NCBI RefSeq assembly: GCF_001467895.1
Contig: NZ_LNYO01000013.1
Coordinates: 476,686 to 540,685, forward strand
Length of the DNA stretch: 64,000 nucleotides
Direction: 5' to 3'
Source of the DNA: Legionella nautarum
Lineage (GTDB): Bacteria > Pseudomonadota > Gammaproteobacteria > Legionellales > Legionellaceae
Shown: one piece after another, positions 2,090-19,123 of the stretch
Numbering within the stretch: position 1 is the first letter of the stretch
Layout of the letters: the number at the start of each line of letters is the position of its first letter
Program-made: the position numbers and the translations under genes
Notes under the pieces: model-generated
What the model saw: the letters and a program-made list of their open reading frames with translations, nothing else
Told to the model about the DNA's origin: nothing
Database searches by the model: none

Positions 2090-2118
2090 TTGATGATTAA
2101 AGCCTATTATGGTATAAA
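2090..2118 (+). promoter_or_regulatory. Predicted sigma-70 promoter of rpsB-tsf-pyrH-frr
   Basis: TTGATG at 2090-2095, a 17 bp spacer, then TATAAA at 2113-2118. Transcription is expected to start near 2125, leaving a leader of about 90 nt before the rpsB ATG. It is the best -35/-10 pair in the gap. Confidence 0.65.
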
Positions 2119-2124
2119 TATCGC

Positions 2125-2215
2125 GCTTTAAATACACACACGTTTCGTCACATACGGCTGGGTCCCATGAGGGTGCTGTATGGGGGACGTGGAGGCCTAA
2201 CCCTGGAGAAATAAA
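2125..2215 (+). promoter_or_regulatory. Structured 5' leader of rpsB (probable S2 autoregulatory leader)
   Basis: The leader is GC-richer than its surroundings and can fold: GTCCCAT (2161-2167) pairs with ATGGGGGAC (2179-2187) with two bulged G, flanked by GGC/GCC and GGGT/ACCC pairing ending at the GGAG ribosome binding site (2205-2208). In E. coli and relatives, protein S2 represses rpsB-tsf translation through a conserved leader structure. Position and folding fit that model. Identity with the family motif is inferred from position, not aligned. Confidence 0.5.
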
Positions 2216-12334: not shown

Positions 12335-13048
12335 GTGCATCATCTTATTGAGAATACTCATCCAGAATGGCATGAATTACTTAATCAAGCGTTGTTGCAT
12401 GTGGAACAGGAATATTTGCGGCAATTAAAAAATAGTCAACACTGGCTGCCAGGCTATTCTGCTTTATTTGCTGCATTTAGCCAGCCATTAAGTAAAACGA
12501 AATATATCTTACTTGGCGAATCACCTTACCCACGGCCAGAATCCGCCAATGGTTATGCGTTTTGGGATGAAGCTGTTCATGCCTTGTGGAGTAATACTGG
12601 ACTTAGTAAGCAAGTCAATCGTGCGACTTCTTTGCGCAATATAATAAAAATGCTGCTTATTGCTCGGGGGGATTTACAACAAGATTGTTCCCAACCAGCA
12701 ATCGCTGCTCTCGATAAATCTCAATATTGGCAGACTTCTGAGCAATTGTTTGGCAACATAATTAATAAAGGGTTTTTACTTTTAAATGCGTCGCTAGTCT
12801 ATGCTGAAGACAAGGTGCGGTTTCACGCACGCCAATGGCAGCCTTTTATGCATAGTCTACTTTGTCAATTAGCTAAGAGAGAGCAAAAGGTAGAGTTGAT
12901 TTTATTTGGACGAATTGCAGAACAAATTCCTGAATCTATCTTTTTTCCTTGCTTAATTGCCGAGCACCCTTACAATTTAAGTTTTATTACTAATCCTAAA
13001 GTGTTGGAATTTTTCAAACCTTTAGATTTATTGAGTTGCCATGAATAA
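12335..13048 (+). CDS. Uracil-DNA-glycosylase-fold protein with altered catalytic motif
   Basis: 237 residues from a GTG at 12335 preceded by AAGGGAGA with 5 nt spacing; an in-frame ATG at 12299 lacks a good site. The fold follows family 1 UDG. ILLGESPYPRPESANGYAF near residue 58 aligns with the ILGQDPYHGPGQAHGLAF region, GFLLLNASLVYAEDK near 146 aligns with the uracil-binding GVLLLNTVLTV block, and EHPYNLSF near 210 aligns with HPSPLS. The uracil-reading Asn and the motif His are kept, but the water-activating Asp of GQDPYH is Ser here. It may bind DNA without classic excision, or use other chemistry. It overlaps ubiG by 8 bp. Confidence 0.75.
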   Translation: MHHLIENTHPEWHELLNQALLHVEQEYLRQLKNSQHWLPGYSALFAAFSQPLSKTKYILLGESPYPRPESANGYAFWDEAVHALWSNTGLSKQVNRATSLRNIIKMLLIARGDLQQDCSQPAIAALDKSQYWQTSEQLFGNIINKGFLLLNASLVYAEDKVRFHARQWQPFMHSLLCQLAKREQKVELILFGRIAEQIPESIFFPCLIAEHPYNLSFITNPKVLEFFKPLDLLSCHE

Positions 13049-13745
13049 ATCAACAGTAGATCCTCAAGAAGTTGCTAAATTTGCTCAACATGCTAGTCAT
13101 TGGTGGAATAAAGAAGGCCCTTTAAAAACTTTGCATGATATTAATCCTGCTCGTCTTGAATTTATTAAAAATCACCTTAAGCTTGAACAGAAAACCGTTC
13201 TCGATGTGGGTTGTGGCGGAGGTATTTTATGCGAGGGAATGGCAGCAGAAAAAGCGCAAGTCACAGGTTTAGATGTTGAAATGGATGCACTAGAAGCTGC
13301 GAAAGCGCATGCAAATCTCAGCAAACTCAGTATCAATTATGTTTGTTCACCTGTGGAAGACTATGAGGCAAATGCTTTTGATGTCCTAACCTGCATGGAA
13401 ATGCTAGAGCATGTTAATAATCCCCAATTGGTAATTAATCATTGTGCGCGTTTGTTAAAACCAGGCGGCTATCTTTTCTTATCGACAATCAATAGAACTT
13501 TAAAAGCCTATGCAACCGCGATTGTTGCAGCAGAATACGTATTGGGAATCTTGCCAAGGCAAACTCATGATTTTGCAAAATTTATTAAACCCAGTGAGTT
13601 AGCAGCCATGATCAGAGAAGCGGGGCTTGAATTCAAAGATATCGCAGGGATAGCTTACAATCCTTTAAGCCGTACAGCTAGGCTTAAAGAGTCGGTGGAT
13701 GTCAATTATTTGCTTGCTTGTTTTAAACCCGTCTCATGCGATTGA
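13041..13745 (+). CDS. ubiG: 3-demethylubiquinol O-methyltransferase
   Basis: SAM-dependent methyltransferase that performs both O-methylations of the ubiquinone ring. 234 residues, typical length. Landmarks are FAQHASHWWNKEGPLKTLHDINP near residue 13-35, the SAM loop VLDVGCGGGILCE near 53, TCMEMLEHVNNP near 115 and FLSTINRTLKAY near 145. It acts at the inner face of the cytoplasmic membrane in the Ubi complex. The start lies inside the end of the UDG-like gene, so the two are coexpressed. Confidence 0.97.
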   Translation: MNKSTVDPQEVAKFAQHASHWWNKEGPLKTLHDINPARLEFIKNHLKLEQKTVLDVGCGGGILCEGMAAEKAQVTGLDVEMDALEAAKAHANLSKLSINYVCSPVEDYEANAFDVLTCMEMLEHVNNPQLVINHCARLLKPGGYLFLSTINRTLKAYATAIVAAEYVLGILPRQTHDFAKFIKPSELAAMIREAGLEFKDIAGIAYNPLSRTARLKESVDVNYLLACFKPVSCD

Positions 13746-13807: not shown

Positions 13808-14167
13808 TTACTCTTGATTTTTCTTTTCAACATAACGTTGCTGATAGCGTTGATGAGCGTATTTTGCTTGCTCTTCTGTCACTACATCCACTTCATTACC
13901 AAAAAGATCAACACGAGCGGTGTTGGCTTTCTGACAATTTAAATAAGCAGGGGATGAGCTATAGTAACTCAGTGCTTCTCGTAATGCTTTTTTACTAAAA
14001 GGTGGGCTATCTAAGCGTTCATAAAAATCAATAATTTCGTCAAATATACCGATCTGTAATGGCTTAACCTGGCTTCCTTTTTTAAAAAAAGCACAAGGAA
14101 AATGCTCAATTAACCAATCGATAATTTGGAGCTTATCTTTTTTGACGATTTCACTCTGCTGGGTCAT
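13808..14167 (-). CDS. Minimal ProQ/FinO-domain RNA chaperone
   Basis: 119 residues consisting almost solely of a ProQ/FinO domain, which binds structured 3' ends of RNAs and aids sRNA-mRNA pairing. Family text includes WLIEHFPCAFFKKGSQVKPLQIGIFDEI (about residues 19-46), KKALREALSYYSSSPAYL (74-91) and the C-terminal ARVDLFGN. The long linker and Tudor-like C-terminus of E. coli ProQ are absent. The ATG at 14167 has GGAG at 7 nt; an upstream TTG at 14185 overlaps that site. L. pneumophila has several FinO-domain proteins, including the competence regulator RocC, which is longer. This one resembles the short class. Confidence 0.88.
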   Translation of the reverse strand: MTQQSEIVKKDKLQIIDWLIEHFPCAFFKKGSQVKPLQIGIFDEIIDFYERLDSPPFSKKALREALSYYSSSPAYLNCQKANTARVDLFGNEVDVVTEEQAKYAHQRYQQRYVEKKNQE

Positions 14168-14343
14168 GCTTGTACTCCATAGCAATGAATGTTGTTAAAC
14201 TACCACAATCAATATGTTTATCAAGGGCTGGTTTACCCTAGTTGGTGACAATTTTGCTACGAATTATATGATTAATTGTTGTATAAACCATAGTATTTAT
14301 TTTTCAATCTAGCTTTTTTCGATCTTCGTGTCTTAGTTTAGTC

Positions 14344-14357
14344 CAAGAGATTTCTCA
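14344..14357 (+). promoter_or_regulatory. LetA/GacA-type activator box upstream of the CsrA-sponge RNA
   Basis: CAAGAGATTTCTCA matches the reported Legionella LetA-binding consensus TNAGAAATTTCTNA at 10 of its 12 defined positions and is partly palindromic (GAGA-TT-TCTC). Its centre lies about 170 bp before the predicted RNA start, a distance comparable to GacA upstream activating sites of rsm genes in Pseudomonas. Confidence 0.65.
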
Positions 14358-14484
14358 AATTACCTCAAGAAATCAGTAGTTATAGCTTGGTAATTATTCT
14401 TTTAGAATAACTAACCTATTGAATTATATTGATTAAGCTATTTTATAAGAAAAAGACATTTCGTCTTAACCGTGACATACTGTC

Positions 14485-14513
14485 TTGCAAAGCAGCACTC
14501 TAGTTGCTAAATT
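14485..14513 (+). promoter_or_regulatory. Predicted core promoter of the CsrA-sponge RNA
   Basis: TTGCAA at 14485-14490, a 17 bp spacer and TAAATT at 14508-14513. This places the transcript start near 14520, immediately before the first GGA hairpin. Confidence 0.55.
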
Positions 14514-14519
14514 TTAGAC

Positions 14520-14656
14520 ATGGCTTCAAGGGATTTGAGGCTTTTTAAAAGGATTTTTAATCATAGGGATATGATAGTCAAGGATGATGTCGGAACAGGA
14601 TGTTCTGACGGAAGACTGCGAAAAGCCAGGTTTAATACCCTGGCTTTACTTTTTTA
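14520..14656 (+). ncRNA. RsmY/RsmZ-family small RNA sequestering CsrA/RsmA
   Basis: About 135 nt holding seven GGA motifs (14531, 14551, 14567, 14582, 14592, 14598, 14610). Three hairpins present GGA in the loop: GCTTCAA-GGGAT-TTGAGGC (14523-14541, 7 bp stem), TCATA-GGGA-TATGA (14561-14574), and GTCGGAACA-GGA-TGTTCTGAC (14589-14609, 9 bp stem with one G-T pair). The 3' end is a terminator hairpin. Multiple GGA loops are the hallmark of RNAs that titrate CsrA. With the upstream LetA-like box this matches the LetA/S-RsmYZ-CsrA circuit that switches Legionella between replication and transmission. Which of RsmY or RsmZ it is cannot be decided here. Confidence 0.82.
14622..14656 (+). terminator. 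Terminator of the CsrA-sponge RNA
   Basis: AAAGCCAGG (14622-14630) pairs with CCTGGCTTT (14639-14647), followed by TTTACTTTTTTA. Confidence 0.75.
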
Positions 14657-14881
14657 TAGTATAGCCCAGCGCGAGTCAAAGCAGGGATGACAATAACTTC
14701 GTGGAGATGCCTCAGATTTCGAGCACAGAGAAGAAGGTCCCAATATTGCCGAAGATCCTTCGCCATACTTGGATGACTTAGGCTCAGGAAGCCGGGGTGC
14801 TGAGATAGTGTTTACGTTGACAATGAGATAGTTTCTCAAGAAGAACAAAGAGGATGCAAATCATCCTCTCTCCGTCAGGAT
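14657..14881. other. Intergenic stretch without a recognised gene
   Basis: No convincing coding frame. Together with 14168-14343 it makes up the rest of the long gap around the small RNA. The GC-richer part near 14665-14830 looks like degraded dispersed-repeat material, but no second copy was identified in this window. Confidence 0.4.
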
Positions 14882-15556
14882 TTATACAGTGGCAAAGCCG
14901 GAATGGGATAGGTAATAACTGTCAGGATAATAAGCAAAAACTACAGAGCCGCCTTTTAACGTATTAATCACAGGCTTAGCTAGGGTTTTAGCAATTGAAG
15001 GACAGCCCCAACTGCGGCCAGCGCGGCCAGCTTTTTTAATAAAATCAGGCTCTACATACCAGGCACCATGGATAACCACACGTCTGCTGTAAGCGTTGTC
15101 ATTAAATCCTCGCTCCAGGCCTTGTAAATTTAATGAATAGCCTTTAGAACCTATATAAGTATCGCTGGTAACATAGGTACCGAGACTTGTTGCTTTACTG
15201 GAGGGGGCGTTTGAGAAATGAGTAGGAGTGTCCATTCCTGAATTTCTGCCATGAGCAACATAGGTATTGTATAAAAGTCGCTCGCTATTGACATCAAAAA
15301 CCCACATACGTTGCTTATTAGAAGGCAGGGAATAATCAATAACAGTGAGAACGGGTTTTTTTACAGCCCCTTTGTCGGCTGCTTTTTTATAGGCTGTTAA
15401 TGCGAGCTTAAGAACTTGTTTGTTAAGCTGTGGCGCTATTTGACTCAGGTGCTGAACATGTTGGTTAACATCAAAGCCCGTTTTAGTGGGAATTGCATTG
15501 TGTGAAAGACCTGTCGAAAAAAACGCTGCAGAAAGTATGCTTAATATTGTACTCAT
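14882..15556 (-). CDS. Murein L,D-transpeptidase catalytic-domain protein (YkuD_2 type)
   Basis: Periplasmic enzyme expected to form or remodel L,D-crosslinks or attach proteins to peptidoglycan. 224 residues. The first ~20 are hydrophobic and look like a signal peptide or anchor (MSTILSILSAAFFSTGLS). The catalytic signature is complete: VVIHGAWYVEP with His about 163 and GRSWGCPSI with the nucleophilic Cys about 185. The region TVIDYSLPSNKQRMWVFD near 71 is the first strand of the YkuD_2 fold. It stands alone, divergent from putA across a 414 bp AT-rich gap. Confidence 0.87.
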   Translation of the reverse strand: MSTILSILSAAFFSTGLSHNAIPTKTGFDVNQHVQHLSQIAPQLNKQVLKLALTAYKKAADKGAVKKPVLTVIDYSLPSNKQRMWVFDVNSERLLYNTYVAHGRNSGMDTPTHFSNAPSSKATSLGTYVTSDTYIGSKGYSLNLQGLERGFNDNAYSRRVVIHGAWYVEPDFIKKAGRAGRSWGCPSIAKTLAKPVINTLKGGSVVFAYYPDSYYLSHSGFATV

Positions 15557-15970
15557 AACACTCCTTTTTTCTTGTTAAACGTCGGAAATAAGGTATACAT
15601 ACGGATGGTGATTATATTTACAAGTAACACAAATGTAAAATTACAAGAGAAGTGATTGCCCATTAGGGTGAAATATTATCCAATTCAGAAAGTTAGAAAA
15701 AGATAAGCTTATAATCTCAGAATAAATATTACACAAAAAGTTTGTAAAAAAATCTATCTAGTCTTAATTCCACCGATTTAACAGTATTAAAAAAGTGCAA
15801 TATTAACACAAATAGATCTGTTTTGGCTATAAATTGATCATTTATTCTGCGAGAATAGGCGACATAAGGGCTATAGATTTGGTAAAATACTTACCGGTAC
15901 ATTTCAATTAGAGATGTTCTGAATTATTATCGCCTGATATTTTTTGACCTGTTGGATTGGAGATTACACC
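15557..15970. other. AT-rich divergent promoter region between the L,D-transpeptidase gene and putA
   Basis: 414 bp with no open frame of note and no repeat seen. It must hold both divergent promoters and any proline-responsive control of putA, but no specific site is distinctive enough to call. Confidence 0.4.
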
Positions 15971-18900
15971 ATGCTTGAGCGATACTCAGCACAACTTCCG
16001 CAAGGTGCTCGCGCACTAATAAATAATGCTTACCGTGTTGATGAACTAACCGTACTTACCGAACTAATAAAAAATGCTGAGTTAGATAGTGAACAGATCA
16101 ATGCTACTCGCAATCAAGCAACAATTCTCGTTGAACAGGTACGCGCAGAGCGTAAAAAAAGCACGGGTATCGATTCTTTTCTTACCGAGTACTCTTTATC
16201 AAGCGATGAAGGGATTGCATTAATGTGTTTGGCAGAAGCGTTGCTGCGCGTACCTGACAATGCAACCATCGATAGTTTAATAAAAGATAAATTGACAACT
16301 GCTGATTGGAAATCGCATCGGGGTCAGAGTGATTCTTTTTTTGTGAATGCAACAACCTGGGCTTTAATGTTAACAGGAAAAGTGCTCACGCCAGAAAAAG
16401 CAGATTCCATGTTATCAAAAACCTTATTTAAATTGCTCAACCGTAGTGGTGAATCCGTCGTACGTAAGGCAGTAGACAAGGCAATGCGCATCATGAGTAA
16501 ACAATTCGTGACTGGGCGAACAATTGGCGAAGCTTTATCGCGCGCAAAGAAAAAAGAAGCTATAGGTTACCGTTATTCCTACGATATGCTTGGCGAAGCA
16601 GCCCTCACGATGATTGACGCCGACCGTTATTTTGATGCTTATAAAGAAGCAATCAAAGCAATCGGCGCCAGCGTTGATAAAAATATCCATATCTACCAAC
16701 GTGCTGGTATTTCCATCAAACTTTCTGCTTTGCATCCTCGTTATCAAGAAGCACAGCGTGTGAGAGTTATGGAGGAGTTGCCCCCTAAATTATTGGAGTT
16801 GTCTCAATTAGCTAAAGAATATGATATTGCTCTTACTATCGATGCAGAAGAATCCGAACGACTTGAGCTCTCGCTCGATATTATAGAACGCGTATTCAAC
16901 GATGATAGCTTGCATGGTTGGCAAGGCTTTGGAATGGCAGTGCAATCTTACCAAAAACGAGCATTCTATTTGTTAGATTGGATTGCTGATTTGGCGAGAG
17001 GAAAACAGCGCCGTATGATGGTGCGCTTAATTAAAGGAGCCTATTGGGATAGCGAGATTAAAAAAACGCAAATGCAGGGATTTTCTGAATACCCTGTATT
17101 TACGAGAAAAGTATTTACCGACGTCTCGTTTCAGGCTTGCGCTAAAAAGCTGCTGACGATGACTGATGCGATTTATCCTCAATTTGCTACCCACAATGCT
17201 TATTCTGTGGCAATGATTCTCAATATCGTTGGTAATTATCGCGATTTTGAGTTTCAGTGTTTACACGGTATGGGTAATGAACTTTATGAGCAAATTGTAC
17301 CTGCGAATCGTTTAGGAATCCCTTGCCGGATTTATGCACCAGTTGGCTCTCATGAAGATTTATTACCTTACTTAGTTCGCCGTTTATTAGAAAATGGCGC
17401 GAATTCTTCTTTTGTAAACCGAATTGTCGACGAAAAAGCACCCATCTCTACATTGGTAGAAGATCCGGTAAGCAAAGCGAGTCATTTATTGGGTAAAATC
17501 AATCAAAATATTCCTTTACCTGCATCTATTTTTGTCCCAGGGAGAAAAAATTCGAGTGGTATTGATTTTACTGATCGGGAGGTAGTTGCCAAATTACAGC
17601 AACGCTATATTGATATGGATCTTTCTCATTGGTTTGCTAAACCACTTTTAGCCGGTGGAAAGCAAGGTGGAGAAGTGGAGCGCTCAGTCTTATCACCACA
17701 AAACCCTGAGCGGCCAATAGGTCGGGTGAGTGATTCCACTCAACAGGATATTGATTGGGCTTTATCCCATGCTGAACGCGCTTTCCCAAGCTGGTGTCAA
17801 ACCCCAGTCATTGAGCGAATAGCTTGTATTGAACGTTTTGCCAATCTTTTAGAAGAAAAGATGCCTGAATTACTGGCGATGGCTTGTTTAGAAGCAGGTA
17901 AAACCTGGAGTGATGGTGTTGCAGAAATTCGCGAGGCCGTCGATTTTTGCCGTTATTATGCAATGATGGCAGAAAAATTAATGGCCAAGCCTATGAAACT
18001 TCATGGTTATACCGGTGAATTAAATGAACTTAGTTTACATGGTCGTGGAGTCGTTCTCTGTATTAGTCCATGGAATTTTCCTTTAGCTATTTTCACGGGG
18101 CAAGTGGCTGCAGCTTTAGTAACAGGGAATTGTGTGATTGCTAAACCTGCTGAGCAAACCTCTTTAATCGCTTGTTTTGCTGTGCAGTTAATGCATCAAG
18201 CGGGGATCCCTACAGAGGTGGTGCAATTATTACCTGGAAATGGTGAAACCGTAGGTGCTGCATTGGTCGCTGATCCGCGTATTAAAGCAGTGATCTTTAC
18301 TGGCTCAACGCAAACGGCTGCTCATATTAACAAAACACTGGCGACTCGCGGAGGAGAAATTATTCCTCTTATCGCGGAAACTGGTGGGCAAAATGCAATG
18401 TTAGTTGATTCTTCTGCTTTATTAGAGCAAGTTGCGATTGATACAATTACTTCTGCCTTTGGTAGTGCTGGTCAACGATGCTCTGCTTTACGGGTTTTAT
18501 TTGTACAAGAAGAAATCTACCCGCGCATGATTCATTTATTAAAAGGGGCAATGGCTGAATTACAAGTCGGAGATCCTCGTTGGCTTTCTACTGATATTGG
18601 GCCAGTTATTGATAATGAAGCTTTATCAGGGTTGAAAGCGCATGTAAACGCGATGAAACAAAAATACGAAATTATTTATCAATGTAAACTGTCGGAGGAG
18701 TGTGAATCTGGGTATTTCATGCCTCCTACTGCAATTGCGATAGATAATATGGCTGCCCTGGAAAAGGAAGTTTTTGGTCCTGTTCTACATGTTATTAGTT
18801 ATAAACGTAAAAATCTTGATGACGTTATTGAGCAGATCAATAATACAGGTTATGGTTTGACCTTGGGGATCCACAGCCGAATTAACCATACTGTAGAATA

Positions 18901-19123
18901 TATTAGAAAACGAATTCATGCAGGAAATTGCTATGTAAATCGTAATATGATTGGTGCTGTTGTTGGTTTACAGCCTTTTGGTGGAGAAGGCTTATCGGGC
19001 ACAGGACCAAAGGCAGGAGGACCCTATTATCTCCTGCGCTTATGTCATGAACGAACTTATACTGTTGATACCACGGCAGCAGGAGGTAACGCGAGTTTAA
19101 TGTCGTTGCCAGAGGGATATTAG
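15971..19123 (+). CDS. putA: Bifunctional proline dehydrogenase / P5C dehydrogenase (short PutA)
   Basis: Converts proline to glutamate through FAD-linked oxidation and NAD-linked oxidation of glutamate semialdehyde. 1050 residues from the ATG at 15971, with GGAG 8 nt upstream. The PRODH barrel covers roughly 190-480 (ISIKLSALHPRY, MVRLIKGAYWDSEI, FATHNAYSV, YAPVGSHEDLLPYLVRRLLENG). The aldehyde dehydrogenase covers about 560-1035, with SPWNFPLAIFTGQ, the Glu of IAETGGQNAML and the Cys of GSAGQRCSALRVLF. The N-terminal ribbon-helix-helix repressor of E. coli PutA (about 1320 residues) and the C-terminal extension are absent, so it cannot autoregulate by DNA binding. Confidence 0.96.
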   Translation: MLERYSAQLPQGARALINNAYRVDELTVLTELIKNAELDSEQINATRNQATILVEQVRAERKKSTGIDSFLTEYSLSSDEGIALMCLAEALLRVPDNATIDSLIKDKLTTADWKSHRGQSDSFFVNATTWALMLTGKVLTPEKADSMLSKTLFKLLNRSGESVVRKAVDKAMRIMSKQFVTGRTIGEALSRAKKKEAIGYRYSYDMLGEAALTMIDADRYFDAYKEAIKAIGASVDKNIHIYQRAGISIKLSALHPRYQEAQRVRVMEELPPKLLELSQLAKEYDIALTIDAEESERLELSLDIIERVFNDDSLHGWQGFGMAVQSYQKRAFYLLDWIADLARGKQRRMMVRLIKGAYWDSEIKKTQMQGFSEYPVFTRKVFTDVSFQACAKKLLTMTDAIYPQFATHNAYSVAMILNIVGNYRDFEFQCLHGMGNELYEQIVPANRLGIPCRIYAPVGSHEDLLPYLVRRLLENGANSSFVNRIVDEKAPISTLVEDPVSKASHLLGKINQNIPLPASIFVPGRKNSSGIDFTDREVVAKLQQRYIDMDLSHWFAKPLLAGGKQGGEVERSVLSPQNPERPIGRVSDSTQQDIDWALSHAERAFPSWCQTPVIERIACIERFANLLEEKMPELLAMACLEAGKTWSDGVAEIREAVDFCRYYAMMAEKLMAKPMKLHGYTGELNELSLHGRGVVLCISPWNFPLAIFTGQVAAALVTGNCVIAKPAEQTSLIACFAVQLMHQAGIPTEVVQLLPGNGETVGAALVADPRIKAVIFTGSTQTAAHINKTLATRGGEIIPLIAETGGQNAMLVDSSALLEQVAIDTITSAFGSAGQRCSALRVLFVQEEIYPRMIHLLKGAMAELQVGDPRWLSTDIGPVIDNEALSGLKAHVNAMKQKYEIIYQCKLSEECESGYFMPPTAIAIDNMAALEKEVFGPVLHVISYKRKNLDDVIEQINNTGYGLTLGIHSRINHTVEYIRKRIHAGNCYVNRNMIGAVVGLQPFGGEGLSGTGPKAGGPYYLLRLCHERTYTVDTTAAGGNASLMSLPEGY

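What the first reader, a model, noticed from the sequence alone, without database searches (positions are those of the whole stretch)
14344..14656. Unannotated RsmY/RsmZ-type CsrA-sponge RNA with LetA-like box and promoter
Seen in sequence: seven GGA motifs in about 135 nt, three of them in the loops of perfect or near-perfect hairpins; a 3' terminator; a TTGCAA-17-TAAATT promoter; and an upstream partly palindromic box matching 10 of 12 defined positions of TNAGAAATTTCTNA, about 170 bp before the start. Established: Legionella LetA activates RsmY and RsmZ, which titrate CsrA. The combination strongly predicts a member of that circuit next to a ProQ-domain gene.
Basis: partly seen in the sequence, partly recalled or inferred. 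Interest (0 to 1): 0.72.

Follow-up and report, generated by a model that had tools for sequence, protein, structure and literature searches.

The report
Legionella RsmZ-type RNA that traps CsrA
This is a small regulatory RNA of the known RsmZ type, found beside the same genes in many Legionella relatives, that probably soaks up the protein CsrA to help switch the bacterium into its transmissive state; it is a real but ordinary member of a known circuit.

Summary
Window 14520-14654 holds seven GGA motifs, three in hairpin loops, a strong terminator, a TTGCAA-17-TAAATT promoter, and a LetA-like box about 170 bp upstream. The box alone is no rarer than chance in the window, but 44 of 48 relatives keep its core. 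The RNA lies between a ProQ-domain gene and an L,D-transpeptidase gene. A covariance model from 48 relatives finds it in 37 of 74 genomes (34 firmly) and 55 of 80 named loci. Of 19 modelled base pairs, 10 show two-sided changes. The genome encodes CsrA and a LetA-type regulator. Rfam misses the RNA (RsmY 17.7 bits, cut-off 57). A second, different sponge RNA between gyrB and hfq fits RsmY, so this one is most likely the RsmZ orthologue. Upstream there is also a half-box and an IHF-like block. Expression and CsrA binding are inferred. Side result: a third, dispersed sponge-RNA class, multicopy in the L. feeleii group and often beside a LuxR-type DNA-binding gene.

The parts
14343..14359 (.). 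LetA/Gac-type box (CCAAGAGATTTCTCAAA), centre about -170
   Evidence: core AGANNTNTCT kept in 44 of 48 relatives; 10 of 12 match to TNAGAAATTTCTNA
14367..14376 (.). second half-box (AAGAAATCAG), 22 bp downstream of the first
   Evidence: columns 14368-14370 85-96% and 14372 92% conserved in 48 relatives, 14371 only 50%; nearly full second boxes in L011, L012, L050
14412..14424 (.). conserved TAACCTATTGAAT block, about -105; IHF-like (one mismatch to a consensus recalled from memory)
   Evidence: in the alignment TAAC columns 92-100%, TTG 83-94% of 48 relatives; but the fixed string AAC-N2-5-TGAA was found in only 26 of 48; IHF at Rsm/Csr promoters reported in PMC4273665 and PMC4682653
14485..14490 (+). 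-35 element TTGCAA
   Evidence: CTTGC columns 94-100% conserved, not used for selection
14504..14514 (+). extended -10 TTGCTAAATTT (hexamer TAAATT 14508-14513)
   Evidence: conserved, but a form of this motif was used to pick the 48 rows
14520..14654 (+). RsmZ-type CsrA-sponge RNA, about 135 nt (start inferred from the promoter)
14522..14542 (+). hairpin 1, loop GGGAU
   Evidence: fold; its GGA is present in 48 of 48 rows and in a hairpin loop in 43
14547..14558 (+). GGA site 2 (AAAAGGATTTTT)
   Evidence: GGA kept in 48 of 48; unpaired in 38, in a hairpin loop in 15
14560..14575 (+). hairpin 2, loop GGGA
   Evidence: 4 of 5 modelled pairs have two-sided changes; GGA in 48 of 48, in a hairpin loop in 34
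14580..14584 (+). AAGGA site, unpaired in the window's fold
   Evidence: GGA kept in 48 of 48; unpaired in 38
14588..14610 (+). hairpin 3, loop GGA
   Evidence: 4 of 5 modelled pairs have two-sided changes; loop GGA kept in 32 of 48, in a hairpin loop in all 32
14608..14612 (+). ACGGA site, overlapping the end of hairpin 3
   Evidence: GGA kept in 43 of 48; unpaired in 26
14622..14656 (+). intrinsic terminator
   Evidence: 99.3% of cells paired in 48 relatives
13808..14167 (-). neighbour: ProQ/FinO-domain protein, transcribed away from the RNA
   Evidence: PF04352 100.9 bits
14882..15556 (-). neighbour: L,D-transpeptidase (YkuD_2), convergent with the RNA
   Evidence: PF13645 231.6 bits
13041..13745 (+). 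neighbour: ubiG, part of the conserved gene order
   Evidence: TIGR01983 278.3 bits, cut-off 102.95

Best explanation
The locus makes a small non-coding RNA of about 135 nt, the orthologue of Legionella RsmZ. Inferred working: in nutrient-poor or post-exponential conditions phosphorylated LetA binds the box at 14343-14359 and perhaps the half-box 22 bp downstream; IHF bends the DNA at about -105; RNA polymerase, probably with RpoS, starts near 14520. The RNA folds into hairpins that present five or six GGA motifs, binds several CsrA dimers and withdraws them from mRNA, so transmissive-phase genes are released. Shown here: the sequence parts, their conservation and covariation, the shared locus, and the LetA-type and CsrA genes in the same genome. 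Inferred: transcription, LetA, IHF and RpoS control, and CsrA binding, all carried over from L. pneumophila.
For: Anatomy. Synteny: of 22 relatives' loci L003-L024, 21 show the L,D-transpeptidase gene beside the RNA (not L007, a contig end) and 18 the ProQ-domain gene (not L012, L016, L022, L024). Spread: model R1 hits 22 of 22 genus members (G010 at only 28.4 bits), 14 of 24 other family members (G034 at only 29 bits) and 1 of 28 outside the family (G036, 27 bits, noise level); 23 of those genomes supplied training rows. In 80 named loci 55 have a strong hit, 17 of them neither training rows nor duplicates of them. Covariation: 98.0% of cells paired; 54 cells with two-sided changes against 13.6 shuffled and 3-26 in slid controls. 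Four GGA motifs kept in 48 of 48 rows. Upstream footprint. No conserved reading frame. Partners: a UvrY/SirA/GacA-family regulator over its cut-off (281.9 against 280 bits) and CsrA over its cut-off. RsmZ rather than RsmY.
Against: No RNA data for this genome. L. pneumophila itself was not among the named records returned, so orthology with the studied RsmZ is by elimination. Rfam RsmZ and RsmY models do not pass. The LetA box is not above chance by itself in the window. The 48 rows were selected by -10 motif, terminator string and at least 4 GGA, so those features are partly circular. 25 of 80 named loci gave no strong hit: 2 end at the L,D-transpeptidase gene, 3 have under 360 bases beyond it, 20 have at least 666 bases and still none. 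One infection study saw RsmY and RsmZ fall from replicative to transmissive phase, although RsmZ rose in post-exponential broth (PMC3048289, passages), so the timing is not simple. One review notes that LetA and IHF sites have similar consensus sequences and may compete (PMC4273665, passages).
Confidence: 0.9

Rival explanations
1. It is the orthologue of RsmY, not RsmZ; names would swap but the mechanism would be the same.
For: The best Rfam match by E-value in the stretch is RsmY (17.7 bits, E 0.051).
Against: The gyrB-hfq RNA fits RsmY better. In 6 of 7 relatives with it on a contig over 2.9 Mb it lies within 17 kb of a contig end (G004 is the exception), which fits the label lppnc0001 of RsmY if labels follow gene order (PMC8828724). 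It is about 100-110 nt by my reading, as reported for RsmY (PMC5928044). In L. norrlandica its nt 48-65, from my assumed start, resemble the human microRNA that RsmY nt 48-65 is reported to resemble (microRNA letters recalled). The L. longbeachae copy of the window RNA leans to Rfam RsmZ (25.2 bits, below 44).
Confidence: 0.08
2. It is a short leaderless mRNA: the window copy has an open frame of 56 codons from the ATG at 14520.
For: The open frame exists.
Against: 7 of 48 relatives lack an ATG in the first 12 nt; in the other 41 the frame runs 3 to 66 codons with no common end. Changes preserve base pairs.
Confidence: 0.01
3. It is an untranslated leader or trailer of a neighbouring gene, or only a transcription terminator for the intergenic region.
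For: A terminator is present and the RNA points at the convergent L,D-transpeptidase gene.
Against: It ends in its own terminator before the convergent gene, the sites upstream are conserved, and the next gene on its strand is putA at 15968, beyond the oppositely oriented L,D-transpeptidase gene.
Confidence: 0.03
4. It is a sponge for the accessory CsrA-like proteins of the genome rather than for the main CsrA.
For: Five CsrA-family matches, four over the cut-off, lie in this genome.
Against: A CsrA that passes the equivalog models is present, and the RNA is conserved in many relatives; the conservation of the extra CsrA-like genes was not examined.
Confidence: 0.05

Closest known systems
Legionella pneumophila RsmZ (PMC5338858, PMC5928044, PMC3048289: passages read)
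   Same: GGA-rich small RNA under LetA, CsrA sponge role; unlabelled RsmZ competes CsrA off mRNA in L. pneumophila
Legionella pneumophila RsmY
   Same: Same circuit; an RsmY-type RNA exists in this genome at G000:C13:903724-903831
   Different: Different locus (gyrB-hfq), shorter, box about 75 bp before the start; model R1 does not find it at E up to 10 and R2 gives the window RNA only 10.3 bits
Pseudomonas RsmZ/PrrB (RF00166) and RsmY (RF00195)
   Same: Same kind of architecture; weak matches in one Rfam clan
   Different: All below the gathering scores
Escherichia coli CsrB with UvrY and IHF (PMC4682653: passages read)
   Same: Far-upstream palindromic UvrY site, and a putative IHF site between the two UvrY contact sites
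   Different: No sequence comparison was made; CsrB is recalled to be longer with many more sites

Membership tests
Rsm/Csr-type CsrA-sponge RNA | several GGA motifs in hairpin loops or single strands | tested here: met
   7 GGA, 3 in loops; 4 sites in 48 of 48 rows, others in 43, 32 and 18 of 48 (rows had been picked for at least 4 GGA)
Rsm/Csr-type CsrA-sponge RNA | conserved RNA structure | tested here: met
   10 of 19 pairs with two-sided changes, 98.0% of cells paired
Rsm/Csr-type CsrA-sponge RNA | non-coding, own promoter and terminator | tested here: met
   at sequence level; transcription itself not shown
Rsm/Csr-type CsrA-sponge RNA | GacA/UvrY/LetA-type box upstream | tested here: met
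   core in 44 of 48 relatives; not above chance in the window alone
Rsm/Csr-type CsrA-sponge RNA | CsrA and the response regulator in the genome | tested here: met
Rsm/Csr-type CsrA-sponge RNA | binds and titrates CsrA | not testable with these tools
Rsm/Csr-type CsrA-sponge RNA | expression depends on the response regulator | not testable with these tools
Legionella RsmZ | orthologous locus, distinct from RsmY | tested here: inconclusive
   distinct from the gyrB-hfq RNA that fits RsmY; L. pneumophila locus not compared
Rfam RF00166 PrrB_RsmZ | score at or above gathering (44 bits) | tested here: not met
   no match in the window stretch; L. longbeachae copy 25.2 bits
Rfam RF00195 RsmY | score at or above gathering (57 bits) | tested here: not met
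   17.7 bits

The most novel reading that the evidence does not exclude
Legionella have, beside RsmY and RsmZ, a third class of LetA-box-driven sponge RNAs that spreads as a dispersed unit: a Gac-type box, a GGA-hairpin RNA closed by a long outer stem, and often a convergent gene for a LuxR-type DNA-binding protein whose helix-turn-helix resembles that of LetA/UvrY. Some species carry several copies, so the CsrA-titrating capacity of a genome would be set by copy number of these units. The window's genome holds one RNA of this class besides RsmZ and RsmY.
Probability: 0.35. Interest if true: 0.6.

Novelty: new member of a known kind. Interest (0 to 1): 0.32.

Why it matters
It places an RsmZ-type branch of the CsrA circuit at one shared locus in many Legionella relatives (21 of 22 fetched relatives' loci; 55 of 80 named loci), shows that Rfam models miss it here, and yields a covariance model and an upstream footprint (LetA box and half-box, an IHF-like block, an extended -10) that could be used to annotate it. 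If the parts work as in L. pneumophila, the circuit found there holds well beyond that species.

Tried and rejected
Rfam at gathering and relaxed thresholds: nothing at gathering in the region; only sub-threshold RsmY. Leaderless ORF: rejected. LetA box as evidence on its own: rejected, no better than chance in 64 kb. Finding a paralogue of the window RNA with model R1 in its own genome: nothing credible (next best 20.5 bits, E 0.19); the other RNAs came from LetA-box scanning. Candidate L131 in L. norrlandica (23 bits): judged chance by eye, no array of GGA hairpins seen. The LetA consensus as a literal search term found no paper. The one primary paper on Legionella RsmY and RsmZ that I asked for is not held, so published coordinates could not be compared. 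The 25 named loci without a strong hit were re-searched at E up to 1: only 17.2, 14.9 and 13.3 bits, not counted. A control for R2: it gives weak extra matches (10.3 bits in the window RNA, 8.3 and 7.9 elsewhere in the window), treated as noise.

Full report
WHERE IT IS. The window lies in a 3.65 Mb genome (G000, 27 contigs). Gene order: ubiG (13041-13745 +), a ProQ-domain gene (13808-14167 -), the RNA, an L,D-transpeptidase gene (14882-15556 -), putA (15968-19123 +). Of 22 relatives' loci L003-L024, 21 show the L,D-transpeptidase and 18 the ProQ-domain gene.

THE OBSERVATION. All stated features are there. Seven GGA motifs fall in 14520-14654; one (14592) is in a stem and is kept in only 18 of 48 relatives, so five or six are likely CsrA sites. 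When each of the 48 is folded, the GGA at 14531 lies in a hairpin loop in 43, that at 14567 in 34 and that at 14598 in all 32 that have it, but those at 14551 and 14582 in only 15 and 10, though unpaired in 38 each. GGA density alone is mildly unusual (81 of 2000 shuffles of the intergenic region reach it); the fold is far more stable than shuffles (0 of 200, z -4.14). The LetA-like box matches 10 of 12 positions, yet 7 such matches occur in the window with 9.83 expected. Its weight comes from conservation only.

CONSERVATION. DNA search found the region in 24 of 56 genomes. I extracted RNAs by a script that required a -10 motif, a terminator string and at least 4 GGA: 61 places, 48 distinct sequences, 23 from loci L002-L024 and 25 from named loci. 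These gave alignment A2 and model R1. R1 finds 37 of 74 genomes at E up to 0.01: 22 of 22 in the genus, 14 of 24 elsewhere in the family, 1 of 28 outside it. Three hits (G010, G034, G036) score under 30 bits and I regard them as doubtful, leaving 34, the weakest at 42.9 bits. 23 of these genomes supplied training rows. Among 80 named loci fetched by the L,D-transpeptidase (the best 80 of 125 found), 55 have a strong hit just beyond that gene (65.9-139 bits); 25 are training rows, 13 are duplicates of training rows, 17 are independent. Of the 25 others, 2 end at the gene, 3 have under 360 bases beyond it, and 20 have at least 666 bases and no hit; 19 of those 20 are metagenome bins by their titles.

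STRUCTURE. RNAalifold predicts 19 pairs in three helices, 10 with two-sided changes. Counting on the same alignment: 98.0% of cells paired; 54 cells with two-sided change against 13.6 in shuffles and 3 to 26 in slid controls; covariation score 0.254 against 0.138 in shuffles and 0.036-0.079 when slid. The 5' hairpin is not in this consensus, I think because the aligner placed two registers differently; it folds in the three copies of this RNA folded singly (window, L. norrlandica, L. longbeachae). No reading frame is conserved.

UPSTREAM REGION. Alignment of 48 upstream regions shows islands in otherwise variable sequence: the box at 14343-14359; a half-box at 14368-14372; TAACnnATTG at 14412-14421; CTTGC at the -35; TTGCTAAATTT at the -10 (only the last was a selection criterion). 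In 44 of 48 the core AGANNTNTCT is present, its centre 155-179 nt before the start of the aligned row (row start = 14518 in the window); L007, L024, L064 and L065 lack it. The TAAC block is clear as alignment columns, but a fixed string for it was found in only 26 of 48. A more distant relative, L025, has TGTAAGAAATTTCTTACA, a perfect palindrome equal to the Gac box as I recall it. The TAAC block is one mismatch from the IHF consensus as I recall it. A review reports that IHF cooperates with LetA in inducing RsmY and RsmZ of L. pneumophila, and also that LetA and IHF sites look alike and may compete (PMC4273665, passages). At E. coli csrB a putative IHF site lies between the two UvrY contact sites (PMC4682653, passages). 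The -10 with a preceding C fits RpoS (recalled), and lower RsmY/Z without RpoS is reported (PMC5928044, passages).

PARTNERS. The genome has a UvrY/SirA/GacA-family regulator: 50% identity to E. coli UvrY over residues 1-209, next best of 17 matches 26%; 281.9 bits against a cut-off of 280 with the whole frame, 279.2 with the frame cut short. It has five CsrA-family matches, four over the cut-off; the best also passes the CsrA equivalog models.

RSMY OR RSMZ. Eight places in the genome match AAGARATYTCTYA, with 3 for the reversed control. Besides the window, two have GGA-hairpin RNAs beside them by my reading. One lies between gyrB and hfq (L120, L167; genes named). DNA search finds it in 24 of 39 genomes: 22 of 22 in the genus, 2 of 2 others in the family, 0 of 15 outside. 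Model R2 was built from 19 copies: 18 of the 20 loci (L178 and L184 were not caught by the script; four further matches had no locus) plus L151 of L. norrlandica. R2 finds it in 9 of 9 genomes searched at 97 bits or more; five of these supplied training rows, four (L. longbeachae, L. steelei, L. anisa, L. feeleii) did not. It fits RsmY: within 17 kb of a contig end in 6 of the 7 relatives with it on a contig over 2.9 Mb, G004 being the exception, as the label lppnc0001 suggests if labels follow gene order, which two other labels in that table support (PMC8828724, passages); about 100-110 nt by my reading, with ~110 nt reported (PMC5928044); and in L. norrlandica nt 48-65 from my assumed start read AGTACAGAGGATGTACTT, resembling the human microRNA that RsmY nt 48-65 is said to resemble (microRNA letters recalled). 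RsmY and RsmZ are stated to be conserved in L. longbeachae (PMC2824747, passages). The window RNA is therefore most likely RsmZ. R1 does not find the gyrB-hfq RNA at E up to 10 and R2 gives the window RNA only 10.3 bits, so the two are separate by these models.

HOW IT WORKS (inferred). LetA-P at the far-upstream box, IHF bending, an RpoS-type promoter; then an RNA with five or six GGA sites that binds CsrA dimers and frees their target mRNAs. In L. pneumophila unlabelled RsmZ competes CsrA off target mRNAs (PMC5338858, passages). Timing is not simple: one infection study saw both RNAs fall from replicative to transmissive phase while RsmZ rose in post-exponential broth (PMC3048289, passages), and one study in water found expression little changed without ppGpp (PMC5928044, passages).

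THIRD CLASS, A SIDE RESULT. The other box-linked RNA in the own genome (G000:C13:387914-388134, - strand) has GGA hairpins inside a long outer stem and a box 75 nt before the first GGA. Some matches are short (29-59 bases). All 15 loci show the GGA-GTTGCAAAT start; 14 of 15 have a box by my regular expression, L199 does not. In 9 of 15 a convergent gene for a protein like the 131-residue one of L195 lies beside it (L192 only in part), and none of 43 RsmZ and RsmY loci has it. That protein has a GerE (LuxR-type) domain, 48.8 bits; its best NCBIfam match is UvrY/SirA/GacA over residues 62-128, 29.7 bits, far below the cut-off of 280. Eight copies (L190, L191, L193-L196, L199, L200) share the stretch from about -80 (L199 from about -8, some pairs from -114 or -152) to +700-900, as for a duplicated unit; L187/L188, L189/L201, L196/L200 and L197/L198, from different genomes, also share the upstream flank and look like the same locus. 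No U-run follows the outer stem, and in the own genome a same-strand gene starts 283 nt after the first GGA, so it could instead be a leader or antisense RNA. Whether it equals L. pneumophila RsmX, said to be absent from Philadelphia-1 and L. longbeachae (PMC5928044), was not tested. My paper searches were not aimed at this class, so I make no claim that it is unpublished.

VERDICT. A genuine, conserved RsmZ-type RNA: a new member of a known kind. Confidence 0.9 for the class and mechanism, about 0.85 for the name RsmZ.

Noticed in passing
L118/L187 (G000:C13:387914-388134, - strand); copies L188-L201: A third class of GGA-hairpin RNA with a Gac-type box about 75 nt upstream and a long outer stem; 1 copy here, 6 matches in L. 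feeleii (G014), 4 in each of G015 and G017, 1 in G006.
   Followed up: partly
L190-L196, L199, L200: 9 of 15 third-class loci carry a convergent gene for a LuxR-type helix-turn-helix protein (131 residues in L195, partial in L192), best matched in NCBIfam to the DNA-binding part of UvrY/SirA/GacA; the unit looks duplicated.
   Followed up: partly
L120/L167 (G000:C13:903724-903831, - strand): RsmY-type RNA between gyrB and hfq. In this genome the terminator hairpin lacks the run of T seen in many of the relatives aligned.
   Followed up: partly
L142/L217 (L. longbeachae, G057:C3:162257-162355): A further RsmY-like RNA (36 bits with R2) with a LetA-type box, although PMC5928044 says RsmX is absent from L. 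longbeachae. L. steelei has two similar ones (L139, L152; 26.5 and 25.3 bits).
   Followed up: no
G000: C13:250310, C27:47087, C6:18641, C13:1139507, C27:46915: Five CsrA-family matches in one genome, four over the cut-off, so a sponge could serve more than one CsrA.
   Followed up: no
L118:1501-1705 (+ strand): The same LetA box, read the other way, precedes a TAACCTATTGAC block and a protein-coding gene (187 aa), the same order as upstream of RsmZ: a possible direct LetA target.
   Followed up: no
window 2117-2201 (+): t44 RNA, the only Rfam hit of the window at gathering.
   Followed up: no
window 14520-14690 (+): An open frame of 56 codons runs through the RNA in this genome; it is not kept in relatives and looks like chance.
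   Followed up: yes
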